A stretch of 64,000 nt of DNA from Balneola sp. EhC07 (GTDB lineage Bacteria; Bacteroidota; Rhodothermia; Balneolales; Balneolaceae): positions 101,615 to 165,614 of the forward strand of contig NZ_LXYG01000015.1 in the NCBI RefSeq assembly GCF_001650905.1. The letters run 5' to 3'. The position numbers and the translations under genes were made by a program. Within the stretch, counting starts at the first letter, position 1. Each line of letters begins with the position of its first letter. The notes below the pieces were generated by a model. It worked only from the letters and a program-made list of their open reading frames with translations, was not told the DNA's origin and made no database searches. Positions 5,767-60,725 of this stretch are shown piece by piece.

Positions 5767-6798
5767 ATGAAAAAAGCCTTTTTAGTACTTCTCGTTTTAG
5801 GACAATTTATTTCTTGTCAAAGTAGGAAAGAACAGTCTCATTTTTTAGATACTAAAGTTCAACATATGGAACAAAGGAATTTGGTGTCTGGTGAGCTTAA
5901 TCTCGAATTCGAAAAAGACTTAGATGATGTAGATATTTTTAACTATAAAAACATCGTTGAACTTGATTCAAGTTTCCTACTTGCTAAAAAAGAAAGTTCG
6001 GAATTAGTTTTTTTGGATAAAACTACGCTGAATTTGAATAAGTCTTTTAGAATAAAAGAAGGAAGAGGCCCTAAAGAGGTTGAGTATATCATGGCTTTTG
6101 ATGCTAACGAAGATATGATCGTAGTTGCGGATAATAAACTATTAAAAATATTACAATTTGATCATGATGGTAATCTGATTCGTGAATTTAAAACAAAGGA
6201 AAAAATTCCACATAGACTAAGTTTGTCATCTGATAATTCTATGCATATAATGAACGAAGTTTTTTTTGATGATCTAAAAGATGGGTTTCTAGAAAATATT
6301 ACAATCTTAGGTGATAAAAATTATACTTATGCTAAAGAAAACTTAAAAGATTTACATCCTTTTGGCACAGAAGGAAATATTAAGAGTGTTAAAGACACTG
6401 TTTATTATTTAGGAGCTTACGAACCTTTTATAAAAAAGTACCTAAATGGAGAACAGATATATTCAAGATCTACATTAGATAATTATGATACATCGGTTAA
6501 TTATATTACCGTAATTAGCAATGATAGTCGATCTACCAGCTTAAGCCCTGCTGCAATCTTTTCTTCCAGAGACTTTGACGTAAAAAAGGGATCCATTTTT
6601 GTTATACCATATAGCAATGGCGATAATGATTTTTCATTTATTGATGTATATGCTTCCAAAGATGGTTCTTATATTAAATCATTTCGAACTATAGATGTGC
6701 CTGACAAAATCAATGTATATGAAGAGGAGAGATCTATATTGACTATAGAAAAAGTAGGGGATCTGGAAAAGCCCGTATTCAGAAAGTATAGCTATTAG
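5767..6798 (+). CDS. Beta-propeller lipoprotein (BF3164-like)
   Basis: A 343-residue predicted lipoprotein. The N-terminus MKKAFLVLLVLGQFISC gives a clear signal peptide and lipobox (FISC, Cys17). Blade-like segments include SSELVFLDKTTLNLNKSFRI, EDMIVVADNKLLKILQFDHDG and FIDVYASKDGSYIKSF. The motif EGRGPKEVEYI near residue 100 is the third version of the G-x-G-P-x-E signature shared with the two upstream genes. It is the last of the three-gene propeller set and stands about 155 bases before the first RND permease. Function is unknown; a surface or periplasmic binding role is an inference from fold and location. Confidence 0.68.
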   Translation: MKKAFLVLLVLGQFISCQSRKEQSHFLDTKVQHMEQRNLVSGELNLEFEKDLDDVDIFNYKNIVELDSSFLLAKKESSELVFLDKTTLNLNKSFRIKEGRGPKEVEYIMAFDANEDMIVVADNKLLKILQFDHDGNLIREFKTKEKIPHRLSLSSDNSMHIMNEVFFDDLKDGFLENITILGDKNYTYAKENLKDLHPFGTEGNIKSVKDTVYYLGAYEPFIKKYLNGEQIYSRSTLDNYDTSVNYITVISNDSRSTSLSPAAIFSSRDFDVKKGSIFVIPYSNGDNDFSFIDVYASKDGSYIKSFRTIDVPDKINVYEEERSILTIEKVGDLEKPVFRKYSY

Positions 6799-6807
6799 TA
6801 TCAAATG

Positions 6808-6870
6808 AGAATGCAAAAGAGACAAGGCCTCATAACAGTGTTCCGAAGGGTGCGTTTGGAATGAGATGTA
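6808..6870 (+). repeat. Degenerate copy of the dispersed repeat
   Basis: A decayed match to the 2550-2625 part: aatgcaaaag, aaggcctcat, gttccgaa and a final ggaatgag. It sits between the third propeller gene and the first RND gene. Similarity is visible but weak. Confidence 0.45.
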
Positions 6871-6953
6871 ATCTACTAGGAATTCTTTCAAAAGCTTTCA
6901 AATACAATTAATTTATACTATACTCCTAAGTGCCTATAAATTAATCATCTCGT

Positions 6954-51508: not shown

Positions 51509-52852
51509 ATGAATTCAAAGTACAATATTGTTTCCCTAATTCGCAAAAAACGAGACGGAAAAGTTCTTACTAAAGAAGAGATCCGTTTTTTAATTGACTC
51601 TTACACTGCTGATGAAATTCCTGATTATCAGATCAGTTCATTTCTGATGGCAGCTTTCCTCAACGGACTGAATGACGAAGAATCCGCTGCATTAACAGAA
51701 TCTATGCTTCATTCAGGTATAGTTGTGGATCTTTCGCATGTATCAGGAAAGAAAGTAGATAAACATTCTACCGGTGGAGTGGGTGATAAACTATCTCTTA
51801 TACTCGCACCAATTGTAGCAAGTGCCGGAGTTCCGGTTCCTATGATATCAGGTCGAGGACTTGGACATACCGGTGGCACTTTGGATAAATTAGAATCTAT
51901 TCCCGGATTTTATGTGGATGTAGATCTGGCTCGTTATAAAGAGATTTTGGAAAAACAGAATCTGGTGCTCGTTGGGCAAACTGAAGAAATTGCACCTGCT
52001 GATAAAAGACTTTATGCACTACGTGATGTGACTGCAACGGTAGAATCCATTCCGTTAATTGCCGGCAGTATTATGAGTAAGAAACTTGCCGAAGGAATTG
52101 ATGCCTTAGTACTGGATGTGAAATATGGTTCCGGAGCATTTATGAAGACAGAAGAAGATGCCACAAAACTCGCTCAGGCTTTGGTTGGTATTGGAGAGCA
52201 ATTCGAAAAAGAAACCATCGCGTATCTTACCAATATGAAACAGCCTTTGGGATACAAGATAGGTAATTGGTTTGAAGTGGAGGAATCCATAGATGCTCTG
52301 AAAGGTGAAGGACCCGAAGATATAATGGAGATCTCACACCTGCTTTCCGGAACTATGATCTATTTAGGCGGAAAAGCAGATTCAGTTGAAAAAGGAATAG
52401 AAATCAGTAAACAACAAGTAGAAAAAGGTGAAGCTTTTCAAAAGTGGCTGGATATTGTAGAAGAGCAGGGCGGAGATATTTCATACATCAACAATCCCGG
52501 TAAATATCCGACTGCTGATTACGAGTTTGAATTGAAATCATCTGAAGATGGATATATCTCTGAGATGGATGCTTTCGAGATAGGAACCGCTACTGTTGAA
52601 CTGGGAGCTGGGAGAAAAGTCAAAGAAGATGACGTGGATCCTCAGGCCGGAATTGTGTTAAAAAAGAAAGTAGGAGATAAAATCACAAAAGGTGAAACAA
52701 TTTTAGTGGCATATACGAACAAGCCAACCACGATCGAGCCTGTGACCGCACAGTTGTATGGAGCAGTAACGATCTCAGATACAAAACCTGAAAAGGAGTT
52801 TCTGGTTACGAAAGTAGTTGACAAAAACGGGGTTCGGGATTTCCGGCTTTAA
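51509..52852 (+). CDS. Pyrimidine-nucleoside (thymidine) phosphorylase
   Basis: 447 residues of the DeoA/Pdp family, releasing thymine or uracil from nucleosides with phosphate. The phosphate-binding KHSTGGVGDK is at residues 85-94. The substrate-binding region includes RGLGHTGGTLDKLES (116-130), the lysines in IMSKKLAEG, and DVKYGSGAFMK. A C-terminal alpha/beta domain is complete. The length and the type of the glycine-rich loop favour the Pdp branch, but DeoA cannot be excluded. It stands alone, 72 bases before pspA. Confidence 0.93.
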   Translation: MNSKYNIVSLIRKKRDGKVLTKEEIRFLIDSYTADEIPDYQISSFLMAAFLNGLNDEESAALTESMLHSGIVVDLSHVSGKKVDKHSTGGVGDKLSLILAPIVASAGVPVPMISGRGLGHTGGTLDKLESIPGFYVDVDLARYKEILEKQNLVLVGQTEEIAPADKRLYALRDVTATVESIPLIAGSIMSKKLAEGIDALVLDVKYGSGAFMKTEEDATKLAQALVGIGEQFEKETIAYLTNMKQPLGYKIGNWFEVEESIDALKGEGPEDIMEISHLLSGTMIYLGGKADSVEKGIEISKQQVEKGEAFQKWLDIVEEQGGDISYINNPGKYPTADYEFELKSSEDGYISEMDAFEIGTATVELGAGRKVKEDDVDPQAGIVLKKKVGDKITKGETILVAYTNKPTTIEPVTAQLYGAVTISDTKPEKEFLVTKVVDKNGVRDFRL

Positions 52853-52924: not shown

Positions 52925-53668
52925 ATGTTTAAAAGATTCATACGTGCATTAAAATCAATGTTTGGTGGAGTAATAAGCTCCATGGAAGACCCAAAATTAA
53001 TTTTAGAGCAAAACATTCGTGATCTGAACGATCAAATACCGCAAATGAATGAAAACATTGCGACGGTTAAAGCAAACTTGATTATGCTTCAGAAGGAGTC
53101 TAACCGAAATGAAAAACTGATCGGTGAATTAACTTCTAAGATCAAATCTGCAATTCAGGCAAATCGTGATGATATTGCTGAGGGATATGCACTTCAACTA
53201 GAAAAGGCGAAAGAGAATTTTGCACACACAAAAGATCAGTTAGTATTTGCTGAAAAAGCGTACGACAAAGCACTGAAAGTGAAGAAAGTTTTCATGCGTG
53301 AAAAAGATCGCAAAATTCAGGAAGCTAAAGAAGCTTTGCGTGCAAGCGAAAGAGCTGAATGGCAGTCTAAAATTGCTGATACTTTAGAGCAGTTTGAAGT
53401 TGGTGGCATGGATCAGACTCATGATGAGATGATCAACCGATTAAACGAAAAAACGGCTAAGAACGAAGCTCGAATGGAAATTGCGTTAGATGGTATCGAT
53501 ACTGAGACCATGGAAATTGAAGCGAATGCCGAAAAGATCCGTGCTCAATCATTGGTAGAGCAATTCAAGTTAGAAATGGGTGAATCTTCCGGTTCGATCA
53601 ACATAGATGAAGAACCTGTTGCTGAAGAATCTCCAAAAAAATCTGTTGGTAATAAAGAGAAAAACTAA
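52925..53668 (+). CDS. pspA: PspA/IM30 family membrane-stress protein
   Basis: A 247-residue coiled-coil protein of the PspA/Vipp1 (bacterial ESCRT-III) family. The amphipathic N-terminal helix MFKRFIRALKSMFGGVISSM leads to EDPKLILEQNIRDLNDQI, the family hallmark. A long helical hairpin runs about 25-150, then helices with EARMEIALDGID (181-192) and EQFKLEMG (212-219). A low-complexity tail (220-247) is extra. PspA binds stressed or curved inner membrane and forms rods or rings. It is the first of six closely spaced plus-strand genes ending with an AAA+ ATPase. No pspF, pspB or pspC is visible nearby. Confidence 0.92.
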   Translation: MFKRFIRALKSMFGGVISSMEDPKLILEQNIRDLNDQIPQMNENIATVKANLIMLQKESNRNEKLIGELTSKIKSAIQANRDDIAEGYALQLEKAKENFAHTKDQLVFAEKAYDKALKVKKVFMREKDRKIQEAKEALRASERAEWQSKIADTLEQFEVGGMDQTHDEMINRLNEKTAKNEARMEIALDGIDTETMEIEANAEKIRAQSLVEQFKLEMGESSGSINIDEEPVAEESPKKSVGNKEKN

Positions 53669-53679
53669 CGGAGACTCTT

Positions 53680-54156
53680 ATGAGTAACAAAAGTGAAGAA
53701 GAACGCGAACGCCTGAAGCAGGAATACAAGGAGCATTACCGTCGCATCAAAGAAATAAAAGAGCGTGGTAAAAGGGCTGAGCAAAAAGGAAAGATCGCTC
53801 AGGCTGTCAACAACATGAATCCGGATAATTTACTGGAATCAGTTGATGAGTTTCTGGGAAAAGTTCGCGATAAAGTTACTCATGCGGAAGCCAGGCTAGA
53901 CGTTGCTATGGATAGCATGGATGAAGATTCTGAACTTGAAACAGAAATAAAGAATGAACAGCACGAAGCTGAGTTAAAAAAGCAAAAGGCCAAACAAACT
54001 TTACAACAGGTTAAGGCTGAAATGGGGATGCTTTATTCCGAGATCGAAAAAACCGCAGACGAAATAAAAACGGAAAAAACGATCGGGACAAAAAAGGATC
54101 AGGTAAAGAATAAAGAAACCGATTCATCACCAGGCAACGATACAGAAAAAGAGTAA
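53680..54156 (+). CDS. Short coiled-coil protein resembling the C-terminal part of PspA
   Basis: 158 residues, highly charged and almost wholly helical, with no signal or membrane segment. Residues 70-81 (EARLDVAMDSMD) line up with EARMEIALDGID in the preceding PspA, and 108-116 (LQQVKAEMG) with EQFKLEMG. It therefore looks like a PspA relative that keeps the distal helices but lacks the amphipathic helix and most of the long hairpin. A charged N-terminus (ERERLKQEYKEHYRRIKEIKERGKR in part) replaces them. It begins 11 bases after pspA, and its stop overlaps the start of the next gene by one base. A co-polymer or regulator of PspA is an inference. Confidence 0.7.
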   Translation: MSNKSEEERERLKQEYKEHYRRIKEIKERGKRAEQKGKIAQAVNNMNPDNLLESVDEFLGKVRDKVTHAEARLDVAMDSMDEDSELETEIKNEQHEAELKKQKAKQTLQQVKAEMGMLYSEIEKTADEIKTEKTIGTKKDQVKNKETDSSPGNDTEKE

Positions 54157-55043
54157 TGTCAGCAGACGAACTAAACATCAATTATACTCGCGAAGCATTT
54201 ATGAATCCCATTAACCTGGGAGGATTATTGATCGCAACACTTACCGCTTTTTTCATCAGCGATTTTGGAGATGCTTCTAGTGTGATGCTAACCACAGTGT
54301 TTGGTTTGGAGCTGATGTACTTGGGTATAGTTCCTAAGCTGCCTCGTTTCAGAAAAAAGACGGAACTTAAAAAGATCAAGGAGCGTCACGCTTCCAGTAA
54401 TGAAAAAGATCTGTTTCAATCGCTGGATTCTGCAAGCCAGAAACGCTTTTTAGTACTTAAGCATCTTGCTAAAATGGTGCAGGAAAACTTCGAAAAACTT
54501 CCGTACAGCTCACAGGGATTGCTGGATAATATTGGTAAGAAAATTGAAGAACTGTTGGGGAATTATCTCACACTTCTGGATCTGATAAAACGCTATGAAG
54601 TGTATCTGAATACTTCTCTGGAAACAAATCTTAAGGAAGAAGTAATCCGACAAATAGAAGAAATTAAGACGATCGAATCAGAAAAACTGAAGCGTACAAA
54701 AGCACGACGTGTGGCGATCATGCAAAAAAGGCTTCAGAAATTTAAGATCGCTAAAGAGAAATATTTAGTGTGTGAAACTCATTTGGAAACCATAGAAGAT
54801 GCTGTCAGATATATCTATGAGCAATCTATGACCATGAGTAATCCGGAAGAAATTGGCTTCCAATTAGATAACTTGTTAACCGAAGTGGATGAAACTTCGC
54901 AATTGATTGACGACTTAGATCAGGATATCTTACCTGAGTATACCACGGAATGGGAAACTGAACTGGACTTTGATTCTATTTTAGATGAACTTTCTGATGA
55001 TGTATCAAACGTGTCAAGCACAAAGAAACAAGTTAAAGAATAA
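54156..55043 (+). CDS. Membrane-anchored coiled-coil protein of unknown function
   Basis: 295 residues. Two adjacent hydrophobic helices (about 17-36 and 40-59) form a membrane hairpin, followed by RFRKKTELKKIKERH, positively charged and so probably cytoplasmic. A long coiled-coil/helical domain (about 90-280) and an acidic tail complete it. I do not recognise the family. It shares one base with the preceding gene and lies three bases before the enoyl-CoA hydratase gene. Its layout suggests a membrane receptor or anchor for the PspA-like proteins encoded upstream (inference). Confidence 0.65.
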   Translation: MSADELNINYTREAFMNPINLGGLLIATLTAFFISDFGDASSVMLTTVFGLELMYLGIVPKLPRFRKKTELKKIKERHASSNEKDLFQSLDSASQKRFLVLKHLAKMVQENFEKLPYSSQGLLDNIGKKIEELLGNYLTLLDLIKRYEVYLNTSLETNLKEEVIRQIEEIKTIESEKLKRTKARRVAIMQKRLQKFKIAKEKYLVCETHLETIEDAVRYIYEQSMTMSNPEEIGFQLDNLLTEVDETSQLIDDLDQDILPEYTTEWETELDFDSILDELSDDVSNVSSTKKQVKE

Positions 55044-55046
55044 TTC

Positions 55047-55826
55047 ATGAGCTTATCATTTGAAACACTACTTCTGGATGTAGATGAATCTGGAGTGTGT
55101 GTACTTACTGTAAACCGTCCCGATAAAATGAATGCGTTAAATAATCAGGTTTTTGAAGAACTTGATTCAGCGCTGGATCATATCAGAGAGAGCAAAGAAA
55201 TTAAGGCACTTATTGTAACCGGTGCCGGCGATAAAGCTTTTGTAGCCGGAGCTGATATCAAAGAATTAAACACTTTGGGAGATTCTGAGGCAAAAAAGAA
55301 ATCACTTCGCGGGCAAAGAGTTTTTCAGAAACTGGAAGACCTGACTATACCTGTAATTGCAGCCGTTAATGGTTATGCTTTGGGTGGAGGATGTGAATTT
55401 GCAATGGCTTGTCATGTTCGTATTGCTTCTGAAAATGCATTGTTGGGCTTACCTGAAGTCAGTCTGGGATTAATTCCGGGATATGGAGGGACTCAGCGTT
55501 TACCTAAATTAGTAGGAGAAGCTAAAGCTCTTGAATTGACATTGACAGGTAGATTTGTAAAAGCTGAAGAAGCCAAGGAAATTGGATTGGTGAATCAGAT
55601 AGCAGAAGAATCAGCTTTAGAGTCAGCCAAAGAAATGGTCAAAAGCATGCTTAAACAAGGACCACTTGCTTTAAAAAATGCTATCTTGGCAATTAAGGAA
55701 TCAGGTAATGAGTCAGGGTATAATTCCGAAGCAAATTTATTTGGAGAATTGTACAACACTGATGATTTTAAAGAAGGTACAAGTGCGTTTCTGGAAAAAA
55801 GGAAACCATCTTTTACCGGTAAATAA
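55047..55826 (+). CDS. Enoyl-CoA hydratase/isomerase (crotonase) family protein
   Basis: A 259-residue crotonase. The oxyanion-hole elements FVAGADIKELN (about 65-75) and GYALGGGCEFAMACHVRIAS (about 108-127) are followed by the catalytic acidic residues in LPEVSLGLIPGYGGTQRLPKLVG (about 135-157): both the Glu in CEFAMAC and the one in PEVSLG are present, as in true hydratases. It should hydrate short-chain enoyl-CoA. It is set between the membrane coiled-coil gene (three-base gap) and the CNNM gene (83-base gap), an unexpected metabolic gene in a membrane-stress run. Confidence 0.92.
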   Translation: MSLSFETLLLDVDESGVCVLTVNRPDKMNALNNQVFEELDSALDHIRESKEIKALIVTGAGDKAFVAGADIKELNTLGDSEAKKKSLRGQRVFQKLEDLTIPVIAAVNGYALGGGCEFAMACHVRIASENALLGLPEVSLGLIPGYGGTQRLPKLVGEAKALELTLTGRFVKAEEAKEIGLVNQIAEESALESAKEMVKSMLKQGPLALKNAILAIKESGNESGYNSEANLFGELYNTDDFKEGTSAFLEKRKPSFTGK

Positions 55827-55909
55827 GAACTAACATTTCGTTAATGAAAGACGAACCTCCATCGAGTTTCACATATTGTAAAGAAGTAGAAAAGGGAGCC
55901 AAATAAATT

Positions 55910-57184
55910 ATGGAATGGCTTCTCATTACCGGAACTATTTTATTGAGTGGATTTTTTTCGGGATCCGAAATTGCATTTGTAACGGCAAACAAACTCAAAC
56001 TTGAAGTAGCTTCCAGAAAAAACAATCTCATCTCAAGTTCGATAGGTTTTTTTACTAAAAATCCGGACACTTTTCTCACAACTACTCTTGTTGGAAATAA
56101 CATCGTAAATGTTGTTTATGCTACTTTAATGGCTCTGTTTCTTGTAGAACCCATTATGCATTACACTGAATTGTGGTTTGGTGTTGAGCCGTCATCATTT
56201 CAGATATTGGCAATACAAACATTTATAGCTTCGCTCATTATTATGCTTTTTGGCGAGATACTCCCTAAAGCTATTTTCAGAGCACAAGCAGATATCATGG
56301 TTAATGTGATAGCACTTCCATTGAGATTATTTTACTGGATATTAAGACCGTTGATTGCTATTGCAAACGGATCTTCCAATGTGCTGATCAAATGGTTGGT
56401 TCCTGATGCTGAAAAAACCGAACAATTTTATCGAAGGCAGGATGTGGAGCTGATCGTAAAGGAACTCAGGGAAAGCGGAGGAAGTGAAGATATTGATGAA
56501 GATGATTCTGAGATCTTGCATAATGTACTGGAGCTTTCAAATATGCGCGTTAAGGAATCCATGATCCCACGCATCGATATTGAAGCTGTGGATAAATCTA
56601 CGCCAATTGAAGATGTGCTGAATACCATGATCGAATCGGGTCATTCAAAATTACCGGTGTACCGAGATAGTATTGACGATGTCATTGGTGTTGTATTTGC
56701 TCACGATTTTTTCAAAAACCCAAAGTCGTTGCATGAGATCATTCGTCCAATAAAATTGGTTCCTTCCAGTAAAAAGTCCAAAGATCTGATGCAGGAATTT
56801 CGTCAGTCTAATTTATCTGTAGCAATTGTTCTGGACGAGTATGGCGGAACAGCAGGAATGATCACCATCGAAGATCTCCTCGAAGAAGTAGTTGGTGATA
56901 TTCAGGATGAATACGATACCGATAGTGAGGTAATGAAACGAATCGCGCCAAACAACTTTGTGGTAAGCGGAAATGTTGAAATTGATGAGTTAATGAATGC
57001 CTTCGAAGAAATTAAAATTCCTTTGGAACCTTCTCAGTATGATACCGTAGCGGGTTATGTTATCAATCATTTGGGGCGCATTCCAAAAGTGAATGAAGAA
57101 GTGCTGATTGAAGGCAATAAATTCATAATTAGTAAGGCAACTCAAAGCCGAATTGAGACAATAAGACTAACTATTATTGAGTAG
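55910..57184 (+). CDS. CNNM/CBS/CorC-type membrane protein
   Basis: 424 residues. A DUF21/CNNM domain (about 1-190; [31 protein letters not shown]) is followed by a CBS pair (about 205-330; [39 protein letters not shown]) and a CorC/HlyC domain (about 340-420). Family members are linked to magnesium or other cation transport and are often labelled 'hemolysin family'. It is a paralogue of the GldE-like protein at 45218. It is the fifth gene of the pspA run, and the AAA+ gene follows after five bases. Confidence 0.9.
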
Positions 57185-57189
57185 GGCAT

Positions 57190-58902
57190 ATGTTTGATCA
57201 TTATCCGAAGTGGTCGCAGGAATTTGCGAGAAAATACCTTAGCAGAACCATAAATACTTTTTTGATTCACGGAAACGTGCACGATATGGTTGCACTCAAA
57301 ACCGATGAAGGAACAGAATTCAATCGTTTGAAGTCGTTTCTGTCAGATGAATTTTTTGGAGCCCGTGATTTTGTTGTGTTCTACGACAGAGCTTCCGGAA
57401 TTTACTTCAGAGACAAAGAATCTCAACAGGATTTTAATCAGGCTATAGCAGGCCGAGACAGCATTGTTGGAACTGATTATGCCAAAAAGATGCCTAAGGA
57501 TCCTGTCCGTGTGATGTCTTTACTGGAACAGTACTTCCGACTTCGTTTAGATCAAAAGAAAAGCATAGCGCTTATAATCGATTATGCAGAAACCATCATA
57601 CCGATGAGTGATGCCGGTTCAACCGGAAACGAGGACAGAACTTCTCAGGTTTATTTATCACGATGGGCACATGACCCTATGTTTTTAGCTTCAGATTTTA
57701 CTTGTGTGATGATCACCGAAAATCTTGCAGATCTGAATAAAACCATTGTTCAGAATCCATACACCACAGAGATCAAGATAAATATTCCGGGAGAGGAAGA
57801 TCGTCTGGCGTTTGTAAAATATGAGACGCAAAACGACGATTTCAAAAAGTTATCGGATGTTTCTCCTGCGATCATAGCTCAGCAAACGGCCGGATTGAAT
57901 TACGTGAATATCCGAAGTGTGCTTTCGAACGCTCGTGAAAATCAGGAGAAGATCACCTTCGATGGATTATCGGAAAACAAGAAAGATCTGATCGAAGCGG
58001 AAGCATATGGATTGTTAGAATTTGTGGAAACGCCGTATTCGCTCGATAACGTAGCGGGACATACTCATGTGAAGCAACACCTTCGTCAGGCGGTTAAAGC
58101 CCTTAAAGCAGGCCGACAGGATGTAATGCCGATGGGTTATCTGGTTTGTGGTCCGGTAGGAACGGGAAAAACCTTTTTAGTGACTTGTTTTGCAAGCGAA
58201 GTTGGAATACCAATGGTAAAACTGAAGAATTTCAGAAGCCAATGGCAGGGTGTAACGGAAGGAAATCTCGAAAAGATCTTGTCGTTGTTGAAAGCGATGT
58301 CGCCGGTAGCGGTGATGATCGATGAAGCCGACGCATATTTAGGCGATAGATCATCCGGAGGAGACAGCGGAGTTTCCAGCCGTGTGTTTTCGCAGATCGC
58401 TACTTTTATGAGTGATACCACCAATCGTGGTAAAATTGTTTGGTTTTTGATGACGGCTCGTCCGGATCTGATGCCTATCGATTTAAAGCGACAGGGTAGG
58501 GCGGAAGAGCATTTAGCATTGTTCCCACCTCATACCAAAGAAGAGCGAATTGAGCTGTATGAAGCAATGGCTAAGAAGACTAGCTTGAAGCTTACTGAGG
58601 ATTATATTCCTGCAGTTGTTCAGCAAGGTTTAAAAACATTCTCGGGAGCCGATATGGAAGCGGCTTTAACACGAGCAAAATTCCGTGCAGCGGCAGAAGG
58701 CAGGAAGAAAGTCACACCGGAAATTCTGGATGCAGCATTAGCAGATTTCATCCCACCAACCTATCCGGAGGAAGTGGAATTACAAACTTTGAATGCAGTG
58801 ATCGAATGTACTTCAAAAGAACTGTTACCAGAGCGCTATCGCGAGATGGACAGAAATGAGATTCTTTCTACAATCGAGGAATTGAAGTTTAGAGTAGGCT
58901 AA
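57190..58902 (+). CDS. AAA+ ATPase with degenerate N-terminal ATPase-like domain
   Basis: 570 residues. The C-terminal AAA module is complete: Walker A GPVGTGKT (321-328), Walker B VMIDEADA (375-382), a sensor-1-like FLMTARPD (419-426), candidate arginine fingers Arg434/Arg437 and a sensor-2 helix FSGADMEAAL (484-493). Residues 1-280 look like a second ATPase fold without a P-loop: FLIHGNVHDMV sits where Walker A would be, and IALIIDYAE (126-134) resembles a Walker B strand. This two-part layout recalls Ycf46-type AAA proteins. It is the last gene of the pspA run. By analogy with Vps4 on ESCRT-III it may remodel PspA assemblies (inference). Confidence 0.88.
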   Translation: MFDHYPKWSQEFARKYLSRTINTFLIHGNVHDMVALKTDEGTEFNRLKSFLSDEFFGARDFVVFYDRASGIYFRDKESQQDFNQAIAGRDSIVGTDYAKKMPKDPVRVMSLLEQYFRLRLDQKKSIALIIDYAETIIPMSDAGSTGNEDRTSQVYLSRWAHDPMFLASDFTCVMITENLADLNKTIVQNPYTTEIKINIPGEEDRLAFVKYETQNDDFKKLSDVSPAIIAQQTAGLNYVNIRSVLSNARENQEKITFDGLSENKKDLIEAEAYGLLEFVETPYSLDNVAGHTHVKQHLRQAVKALKAGRQDVMPMGYLVCGPVGTGKTFLVTCFASEVGIPMVKLKNFRSQWQGVTEGNLEKILSLLKAMSPVAVMIDEADAYLGDRSSGGDSGVSSRVFSQIATFMSDTTNRGKIVWFLMTARPDLMPIDLKRQGRAEEHLALFPPHTKEERIELYEAMAKKTSLKLTEDYIPAVVQQGLKTFSGADMEAALTRAKFRAAAEGRKKVTPEILDAALADFIPPTYPEEVELQTLNAVIECTSKELLPERYREMDRNEILSTIEELKFRVG

Positions 58903-59696: not shown

Positions 59697-60725
59697 CTAA
59701 TTTTTGCCCAATATTTTAATAATTCGACCATATACAATATCCGCTAAATTCCAGTTGTATAACTTGGGATCAGTTGTGCTTGTAAACTGAATAACCACTG
59801 CATCAATATCTTCGTCGTATTCGGCAATACTCTGATAACCGGGAACCCATCCTTTGTGATCATATTGATAAATTGAAGAGTAGATTTCCTGTTCTCCTTC
59901 TTCAAATAATGTCCCATTATTCAATGCACGCAGAAAGATCCCGACATCTTCAGCGGTGGCCAGCATACCATGCTCGTCTTCTTTTAAATCAAAAGGATGT
60001 CCAACGTGATATCCGCTCATCACGCTGTCAATATTTACTTCATCTAGTGATGCGAAAGTATTGTTAAGATTCAGCGGTGTCAGAACTTCTTTCTGAATGA
60101 ACTGAAAGGTCTCATAACCCAGAATATTTTCCATGATCTTATTGAGCAACAGATAATTAGTATTGCAATATTCGTAGTCTTCATCGGGTTCAAAGTTAGC
60201 CGGTTTGTCCAGAATCAGTGCAAGACTTTCTTCGTAGGTTTGTGTTGGAGCAGCCCAAAAATTCGGGGCATCTGTAAAATTGGGAATACCGCTTCGATGC
60301 TTTACCATCATTCTCAAAGTGATTGTACTTGCATTTTCGATCCTTCCATCAAGTTCGGGTAGGTAATCAGCAAGAGTTTCATCGAGATCCAAACGACCGT
60401 CATTGACCAGTTTAGTAACAGAAACCGCAGTGTAGAGCTTGCTGATACTGGCGATCTTGAATAAAGCTTTAGGATTGGCGGGTATTCTATTTTCCTTATT
60501 GTGAAAGCCCGCTGCATAAAAAGCGGGAGGTTTGCCCCCCTCATCTACATAAACTATTATTCCATCAAAACCATGTTCGATCGCTTCATTTGCTTGATCC
60601 TGAACCGAGTCGGGCAGAGGTAATATCCACGCCCACACTAAAAGCCAGGGCACAAAGAATAAGGAAGTTATAGTGCCAACCAGCAATACTATTCTGAGTA
60701 CAAGTTTTTTGGGTTTCTTTTTCAT
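59697..60725 (-). CDS. Serine hydrolase of the class C beta-lactamase family
   Basis: A 342-residue protein with an N-terminal membrane anchor or signal (about 10-36). The nucleophile motif is Ser93-x-x-Lys96 (ASISK), and the second motif is Tyr186-Cys-Asn188 (YCN). The third KTG-like box is replaced by something near HKGWVPG. Such proteins are peptidases or esterases related to DD-carboxypeptidases rather than true beta-lactamases in most cases. It is slightly shorter than the usual 380-450 residues. It lies 26 bases downstream of the YdeI-type gene on the same strand. Confidence 0.9.
   Translation of the reverse strand: MKKKPKKLVLRIVLLVGTITSLFFVPWLLVWAWILPLPDSVQDQANEAIEHGFDGIIVYVDEGGKPPAFYAAGFHNKENRIPANPKALFKIASISKLYTAVSVTKLVNDGRLDLDETLADYLPELDGRIENASTITLRMMVKHRSGIPNFTDAPNFWAAPTQTYEESLALILDKPANFEPDEDYEYCNTNYLLLNKIMENILGYETFQFIQKEVLTPLNLNNTFASLDEVNIDSVMSGYHVGHPFDLKEDEHGMLATAEDVGIFLRALNNGTLFEEGEQEIYSSIYQYDHKGWVPGYQSIAEYDEDIDAVVIQFTSTTDPKLYNWNLADIVYGRIIKILGKN

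What the first reader, a model, noticed from the sequence alone, without database searches (positions are those of the whole stretch)
52925..58902. PspA operon with a PspA-like partner, membrane coiled-coil protein, CNNM protein and a two-part AAA+ ATPase
Seen: six plus-strand genes with gaps of 11, -1, 3, 83 and 5 bases. Known: PspA/Vipp1 are bacterial ESCRT-III relatives, and ESCRT-III filaments are disassembled by the AAA ATPase Vps4. Inference: a self-contained membrane-remodelling set with filament former, accessory filament subunit, membrane anchor, ion- or CBS-regulated membrane protein and ATPase. The usual Psp regulators (PspF, PspB, PspC) are absent, so regulation would have to differ.
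Basis: partly seen in the sequence, partly recalled or inferred. Interest (0 to 1): 0.75.

Follow-up and report, generated by a model that had tools for sequence, protein, structure and literature searches.

The report
Bacterial ESCRT-like set with tail motif
A bacterial relative of the ESCRT membrane-repair machinery travels through evolution with a paired-domain ATPase, and a short shared tail motif on its filament proteins disappears where that ATPase disappears, which suggests how a bacterium could recycle such filaments.

Summary
The six genes and five gaps are exactly as described. The gene left out of the title is an enoyl-CoA hydratase; an upstream pyrimidine-nucleoside phosphorylase belongs to the same order. 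The seven-gene order holds in 12 of 12 Balneolales loci fetched by handle and 58 of 80 named loci; in Rhodothermales the PspA-partner-membrane core persists but AAA lies elsewhere. PspA beside an ATPase with two AAA+ domains, the first inactive, is already in print (mSystems 2024). What I did not find in print is a C-terminal motif, K[ST][ILV]G, in the variable tails of both PspA and the partner, itself a 'half PspA'. Of 111 genomes read, 97 of 97 with AAA carry the motif in PspA, partner or both. Of 14 without AAA, ten have lost motif and partner, in three lineages, one still holding an AAA pseudogene relic; the four exceptions are fragmentary assemblies. With three events the sign test is not significant. 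Best reading: a p97/Vps4-like ATPase docks on tail motifs and remodels PspA filaments, analogous to Vps4 and MIM motifs. Direct binding is untested.

The parts
   Evidence: TIGR02644 559.8 bits, cut-off 409; same place before PspA in 12 of 12 Balneolales loci
52925..53668 (+). PspA/IM30-family protein, 247 aa
   Evidence: PspA_IM30 63.3 bits (cut-off 33.9); profile matches solved Vipp1 chains at E 7e-6
53639..53650 (+). codons of the C-terminal tail motif KSVG in PspA
   Evidence: translation; only strict match K[ST][ILV]G[RKN] in the last 40 residues among 326 own-genome ORFs
53680..54156 (+). partner ('half PspA'), 158 aa: equivalent of PspA residues 126-219 plus tail
   Evidence: hhalign probability 99.2%, E 1.4e-19
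54076..54087 (+). codons of the tail motif KTIG in the partner
   Evidence: translation
54156..55043 (+). membrane protein, 295 aa: two hydrophobic helices within residues 18-61 (hydrophobicity judged by eye), then a long helical part
   Evidence: AlphaFold2 model (mean pLDDT 73.6); no significant PDB match; not a PspA relative by profile (probability 5.5%)
55047..55826 (+). enoyl-CoA hydratase/isomerase family protein, kept in the order but not tied to the AAA gene
   Evidence: ECH_1 225.9 bits; still present in four AAA-less loci whose flanks were read
55910..57184 (+). CNNM-CBS-CorC_HlyC membrane protein
   Evidence: TIGR03520 GldE 236.3 bits, below its cut-off 376
57190..58902 (+). tandem AAA protein, 570 aa: residues 1-270 a degenerate AAA module without P-loop, residues 271-570 an intact AAA module
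   Evidence: P-loop in 0 of 53 N halves and 53 of 53 C halves; Walker B DE, Arg434/437 and pore-loop Trp352 invariant in 53 of 53

Best explanation
The locus encodes a bacterial ESCRT-III-like filament system with its own recycling ATPase. PspA is the membrane filament. The partner is a half-PspA (only the C-terminal part, no counterpart found for the N-terminal membrane helix and first 125 residues) that can plausibly join or cap the filament but not bind membrane by the usual helix. Both end in a variable tail with the motif K[ST][ILV]G, in PspA mostly followed by R, K or N. The tandem AAA protein (degenerate first module, intact second module with a Trp pore loop) binds these tails and pulls on subunits to exchange or remove them, as Vps4 does through MIM motifs. 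The membrane protein is probably an anchor or nucleator. Shown: gene order, half-PspA homology, the motif, its association with AAA, degenerate and intact ATPase modules. Inferred: docking of the motif on the AAA protein, pulling, and all membrane steps. About 0.85 that AAA, PspA and partner work together; about 0.55 that the motif is the docking site of the AAA protein.
For: Of 111 genomes, AAA+/motif+ 97, AAA+/motif- 0, AAA-/motif- 10, AAA-/motif+ 4, counted with [KR][ST][ILVM]G in the tails; K[ST][ILV]G gives the same four numbers (110 genomes, and the window). The ten are 8 of 9 genomes of family f33, G177 and G261; in each the partner is also gone. In G177 the contig reads phosphorylase-PspA-hydratase-CNNM with partner and membrane gene gone, and a relic of AAA residues 502-569 with two stops lies right behind CNNM. 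The motif is not for the partner: 7 genomes (f5: 2, f40: 5) have AAA, no partner found, and the motif in PspA. It is not for the membrane protein, hydratase, CNNM or phosphorylase: three f33 loci read with flanks keep all of those and lack the motif. Where PspA lacks the motif but AAA is present (G013, G034, G118, G096, G277), the partner has two copies. Distinct PspA tails with motif 89 of 94, against 0.92 expected on shuffling; partner tails 87 of 88 against 1.16. Motif K, T and G columns have entropy 0.40-0.66 bit, most other tail columns 2-3. Background: 0 of 1327 other ORFs have the strict motif in their last 40 residues, 3 have it anywhere; 0 of 16 canonical PspA from outside the class. 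ATPase residues invariant in the second module.
Against: Four AAA-less genomes keep the motif (G275, G217, G230, G196; 220-670 contigs, 87-92% complete), and no AAA fragment was found in them; gaps are the likely but unproven reason. Only three independent losses: the sign test gives p 0.25 and cannot reach 0.05; only 26 of 106 inner branches of the tree are starred. G261 is only 83% complete. AAA is not linked to PspA in the Rhodothermales loci seen. No complex was predicted or measured. The receptor could be an unlinked gene lost at the same time. The membrane gene was lost too in G177. The motif pattern was drawn from the sequences it is counted in.
Confidence: 0.55

Rival explanations
1. 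The motif is a recognition site for another protein (for example a Ser/Thr kinase or a phosphothreonine reader, since its second position is S or T in nearly every tail), and AAA is lost with it because the whole pathway was dropped.
For: The second motif position is T in 80, S in 13 and P in 1 of 94 distinct PspA tails; the association is genomic only; no binding was shown. That kinases and readers favour such sites is general knowledge, not a result here.
Against: Among the operon genes only AAA tracks the motif; partner and membrane genes do not.
Confidence: 0.25
2. The AAA protein is a general unfoldase or quality-control ATPase and the tail motif is a degradation tag on PspA and partner, so the system controls PspA amount rather than filament turnover.
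For: The closest solved folds are p97/Cdc48 ATPases.
Against: The strict motif in the last 40 residues occurs in 1 of 326 own-genome ORFs, PspA itself (about 0.4 of 3.6 Mb looked at), so no wider set of clients is seen there; no protease gene sits in the order.
Confidence: 0.13
3. The AAA gene is a passenger: the order is only a stable Balneolales gene string without joint function.
For: The order mixes metabolic genes (phosphorylase, hydratase), and AAA is not linked in the Rhodothermales loci seen.
Against: AAA and tail motif go together also where they are unlinked, and absence is shared in three lineages.
Confidence: 0.07

Closest known systems
PspA with a protein of two AAA+ domains, N-terminal copy inactive (mSystems 2024, PMC11237479; example PspA AEY64321.1)
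   Same: PspA beside a tandem AAA protein whose first module lacks the P-loop; ATP-dependent membrane remodelling was proposed there; the paper also notes a Bacteroidetes locus (CBH24266.1) with PspA, a Snf7-type gene and a third coiled-coil gene.
   Different: I saw passages only, not the supplement. No tail motif is mentioned in the nine places found with 'motif', 'tail', 'MIT', 'MIM' or 'C-terminal extension'. Seven-gene order, unlinked AAA in Rhodothermales, half-PspA nature of the partner and co-loss are added here. Orthology with the clostridial example was not tested.
ESCRT-III with Vps4 (archaea, eukaryotes)
   Same: ESCRT-III-superfamily filament protein, AAA ATPase with aromatic pore loop, short motif in flexible tails (MIM, from the literature); the second AAA module aligns with yeast Vps4 (3eih, Z 20.7, rmsd 3.3, 262 residues).
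   Different: No MIT domain among Pfam hits; two AAA modules instead of one; motif unlike MIM sequences (recalled); the p97 D2 module matches equally well (3cf0, Z 21.1).
Cdc48/p97 tandem AAA ATPases
   Same: Two AAA modules in the same arrangement; best sequence and fold matches.
   Different: First module has no P-loop in 53 of 53; no room for an N-terminal domain in front of it.
Canonical Psp system (PspF, PspABC)
   Same: PspA-family filament protein.
   Different: No PspB, PspC or PspF in this operon; this PspA has a tail with the motif, while 16 canonical PspA read from outside the class have none.

Membership tests
PspA/IM30 (PF04012) | profile match above the curated cut-off | tested here: met
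   63.3 bits, cut-off 33.9
PspA/IM30 (PF04012) | rods or rings of PspA on membranes | not testable with these tools
   needs biochemistry
ESCRT-III/PspA fold for the partner | homology to PspA | tested here: met
   hhalign 99.2%, E 1.4e-19, PspA residues 126-219; no Pfam match to PspA_IM30 at E<=1
ESCRT-III/PspA fold for the partner | full hairpin with N-terminal membrane helix | tested here: not met
   no counterpart of PspA residues 1-125 in the alignment
Vps4 | N-terminal MIT domain | tested here: not met
   no MIT family among Pfam hits at E<=1; the N-terminal half is modelled as a second AAA module
Vps4 | single catalytic AAA cassette | tested here: not met
   tandem modules aligned with p97 over residues 6-540
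Vps4 | disassembles ESCRT-III polymers by pulling on tails | not testable with these tools
   motif-AAA association is indirect support only
Cdc48/p97 | two AAA modules in tandem | tested here: met
   (7rlh_A Z 21.5, rmsd 9.7, 460 aligned)
Cdc48/p97 | both modules with Walker A | tested here: not met
   P-loop in 0 of 53 first modules, 53 of 53 second modules
Cdc48/p97 | N-terminal substrate/cofactor domain | tested here: not met
   residue 6 of the model already aligns with p97 residue 210 in the best row, so only a few residues precede the first module
PspA plus dual-AAA association of PMC11237479 | PspA gene near a two-AAA protein with inactive N-terminal copy | tested here: met
PspA plus dual-AAA association of PMC11237479 | orthology with the published AAA proteins | not tested
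   their sequences were not at hand
Canonical Psp operon | PspB/PspC in the operon | tested here: not met
   operon genes by Pfam; whole genome: PspB 0 matches, PspC 2 matches on other contigs

The most novel reading that the evidence does not exclude
A bacterial counterpart of the Vps4-MIM relation: an ESCRT-III-superfamily filament of bacteria is disassembled by a dedicated tandem AAA ATPase that reads a four-residue tail motif shared by PspA and a truncated PspA adaptor, with the degenerate first AAA module serving as the tail reader. [quoted passage not shown]
Probability: 0.4. Interest if true: 0.85.

Novelty: new variant of a known kind. Interest (0 to 1): 0.64.

Why it matters
Liu et al. 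2021 (PMC8281802, passages read) state that it is not clear whether PspF plays a Vps4-like role for PspA or whether an equivalent ATPase exists for Vipp1, and that homology of the MIM region is uncertain; a 2026 review (PMC13051332, passages read) says regulation of disassembly is unclear and points to chaperones. A conserved tail motif whose presence follows one ATPase gives a candidate ATPase, a candidate docking site and ready negative controls (lineages that lost both), so the question becomes directly testable with purified proteins.

Tried and rejected
Rejected: that all six or seven genes act as one set, since hydratase, CNNM and phosphorylase stay when AAA, partner and motif go (four loci read with flanks). 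Rejected: that the partner or the membrane protein is the receptor of the motif (AAA+ genomes without partner keep it; f33 genomes keep the membrane protein without it). Rejected: the membrane protein as a third PspA homologue by sequence (probability 5.5%). Its model gives BAR-like and designed-bundle rows (best Z 13.0, many 9-11; Foldseek best E 0.08), which for long helices may be a common arrangement only; left open. No Rfam match and no tRNA in the window. Promoter and terminator scan not above shuffles. AAA neighbours in five Rhodothermales loci showed no shared context by eye on a crude ORF list, which in one of them (L148) missed AAA itself. Paper searches for PspA with Salinibacter and AAA, or with Balneolaceae, gave 0 papers; PspA/ESCRT-III/AAA/tail searches listed no paper whose title or abstract start describes this motif. 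Those searches cover open-licence PMC only.

Rows dropped and limits. Eight class genomes show two PspA-family matches (G030, G132, G157, G160, G164, G244, G261, G267); only the operon-type copy was counted. Second copies of G160 and G261 were read, are canonical and have no motif; the others were not read. Of 186 class genomes with PspA, 110 were read for tails besides the window's; the other 75, mostly Balneolaceae, were not read by handle. G172 counts as partner-less only because its contig ends (partner hit). AAA status rests (E<=1e-60), rechecked at 1e-6 for 19 genomes. In one search, which kept ORFs of 150 aa or more and the strict pattern in the last 40 residues, it was found in 61 of 76 PspA and only 18 of 46 partner rows, because many partner tails carry it further inside or with other residues after G. 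In one search a PspA ORF was recovered from 16 of 17 loci. In one search the group table, which sets the ten AAA-/motif- rows only against the four AAA-/motif+ rows, needs two changes, one of them forced by starred branches. The named loci overlap with the genomes fetched by handle.
Full report
OBSERVATION. By Pfam they are PspA_IM30, two proteins without a family above cut-off, an enoyl-CoA hydratase (not named in the title), CNNM-CBS-CorC_HlyC, and a 570-residue protein whose C-terminal half is AAA. A pyrimidine-nucleoside phosphorylase gene ends 72 bases upstream of PspA.

CONSERVATION OF ORDER. The window lies in a genome of a class here read as Rhodothermia from the titles of related records (Balneola, Gracilimonas, Fodinibius, Rhodohalobacter, Rhodothermales). 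In 20 loci around the AAA gene, 12 of 12 from the window's order hold phosphorylase-PspA-partner-membrane-hydratase-CNNM-AAA, with AAA identity down to about 60%; in the 8 others AAA stands without them within the stretch fetched (one of these contigs, L046, begins 1 kb before AAA). Among the 80 named loci, which overlap with those genomes, the seven genes stand in order in 58; 5 hold part of the set on contigs that begin inside or just before it (in L098, 1.4 kb before CNNM shows no hydratase match); 17 hold AAA without the set, several on short contigs and one (L116) cut inside AAA. Around PspA of 14 Rhodothermales-type loci (L053-L066), PspA and the membrane gene are together in 14 of 14, with the partner between in 12, and phosphorylase, hydratase or CNNM often flanking. 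So the PspA-partner-membrane core is spread over the class, and AAA is linked to it in Balneolales. PspA is found in 186 of 195 class genomes, AAA in 173 of 195. In 118 genomes across the phylum, 31 match AAA; 29 are orthologue-like and all lie in this class, and two are weak general AAA matches.

THE PROTEINS. The partner aligns with PspA residues 126-219 (hhalign 99.2%, E 1.4e-19): it is a half PspA without a counterpart of the N-terminal membrane helix and the first part of the hairpin (helix names recalled). The membrane protein has two helices within residues 18-61, hydrophobic by eye, and then long helices (AlphaFold2, mean pLDDT 73.6); sequence and fold comparisons leave it unassigned. 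The AAA protein is modelled with pLDDT 87.4 and pTM 0.80. Foldseek and VIA-align give p97/Cdc48 tandem modules first (7rlh_A Z 21.5, rmsd 9.7, 460 residues), and single-module Vps4 ties with p97 D2 for the second module (3eih Z 20.7, rmsd 3.3, 262 residues; 3cf0 Z 21.1). In 53 aligned sequences the first module has no P-loop (0 of 53), the second has it in 53 of 53, and Walker B DE, Arg434, Arg437 and the pore-loop Trp352 are invariant. The names of these motifs are from general knowledge of AAA proteins.

THE TAIL MOTIF. After the PspA core, tails are variable (median 35 residues) except for K[ST][ILV]G, in PspA mostly followed by R, K or N. Of 94 distinct PspA tails from AAA-bearing genomes, 89 have [KR][ST][ILVM]G against 0.92 on average after shuffling; of 88 distinct partner tails 87, against 1.16; 13 partner tails have two or more. 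Motif columns K, T and G have 0.40-0.66 bit entropy, most other tail columns 2-3. Among 1327 other ORFs of the loci none has the strict motif K[ST][ILV]G[RKN] in its last 40 residues and three have it anywhere. In 326 ORFs of the window and 340 kb of its genome the strict motif at the end is in PspA alone; the relaxed form adds the partner and two unrelated ORFs. Sixteen PspA from outside the class (16 of 17 loci gave an ORF) have none.

CO-LOSS. For 111 genomes I read PspA and partner tails and compared them with AAA presence: AAA+/motif+ 97, AAA+/motif- 0, AAA-/motif- 10, AAA-/motif+ 4; the narrower pattern K[ST][ILV]G gives the same numbers. The ten are 8 of 9 f33 genomes (the ninth, G229, has AAA, partner and motif), G177 and G261. 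In all ten no partner was found. In three f33 loci read with flanks (G200, G258, G266), phosphorylase, PspA, membrane gene, hydratase and CNNM remain in order, and the tail ends in TVH-type remnants. In G177 partner and membrane genes are gone, the PspA tail is 19 residues long, and a 68-residue relic of the AAA end with two stops lies behind CNNM; the exonuclease VII gene further downstream is in place as in two AAA-bearing loci of the same genus group (L126, L133). Seven AAA-bearing genomes of f5 and f40 have no partner found but keep the motif in PspA. Five AAA-bearing genomes have no motif in PspA but two in the partner. Hence, among the genes of the operon, only AAA follows the motif.

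STATISTICS AND CAVEATS. On a tree of PspA cores without tails (quick method, 26 of 106 inner branches starred) the motif changes 3 times, AAA 7 times, or 3 without the four fragmentary genomes. Independent pairs: 3 the same way, 0 the other way, 4 without difference; the sign test p is 0.25 and cannot reach 0.05 with so few events. The four exceptions have 220-670 contigs and no AAA fragment. Shared loss does not prove contact.

WHAT IS KNOWN. The mSystems 2024 paper (PMC11237479, passages read) reports bacterial PspA beside a protein with two AAA+ domains, the N-terminal one inactive, proposes ATP-dependent membrane remodelling, and notes a Bacteroidetes locus with PspA, a Snf7-type gene and a third coiled-coil gene. 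I found no mention of the tail motif, the half-PspA relation or the co-loss in those passages or in the listings; supplements were not available. Liu et al. 2021 (PMC8281802, passages) leave open whether an ATPase takes the Vps4 role. A structural study of PspA (PMC11746142, passages) suggests that disassembly may be done by chaperones or PspF in analogy to Vps4. The preprint form of the 2024 ESCRT survey (PMC11188069, passages) confines systems with Vps4 and ESCRT-III to archaea and eukaryotes.

MECHANISM. Most likely the AAA protein assembles as a ring with the first module as a structural or docking tier, binds K[ST][ILV]G tails of PspA and of the half-PspA, and pulls subunits through the Trp-lined pore of the second tier, exchanging or removing filament subunits. 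The half-PspA would be an adaptor or cap that adds tail motifs. Ring formation, docking and pulling are inference. Regulation is unknown; PspB was not found in the genome, while two PspC-domain genes lie elsewhere.

VERDICT. Real, conserved, partly in print as an association; the tail motif and its joint loss with the ATPase are the new and testable part.

Noticed in passing
L033 about 6056-6939 (G065; named copy L077 6974-7860): The membrane-protein gene is split into two overlapping frames in this one genome, a frameshift or sequencing error; the six neighbours match over their length.
   Followed up: no
L071 and L153 (G160, G261; also G267): Three Rhodothermales-type genomes hold a second, canonical PspA (165-172 bits); the two read carry no tail motif.
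   Followed up: partly
window 59697-60725, - strand: Serine-hydrolase of the class C beta-lactamase fold family downstream of AAA on the other strand; far below the cut-offs of the resistance-gene models shown (best 25 of 48 listed).
   Followed up: no
L112 (LKNA01000034.1): Record titled Chitinophagaceae carries the full Balneolales-type seven-gene order at 69% AAA identity; the title may be a misassignment.
   Followed up: no
G129:C152:259-1989: The AAA gene of this genome contains one in-frame TAG.
   Followed up: no
window 51509-52852: Pyrimidine-nucleoside phosphorylase precedes PspA across the order and in many Rhodothermales-type loci; the reason for this pairing is unclear.
   Followed up: partly
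window 54156-55043 model: The long-helix part of the membrane protein resembles BAR-type bundles weakly (Z 9-11, below what helical bundles can reach by common arrangement).
   Followed up: partly
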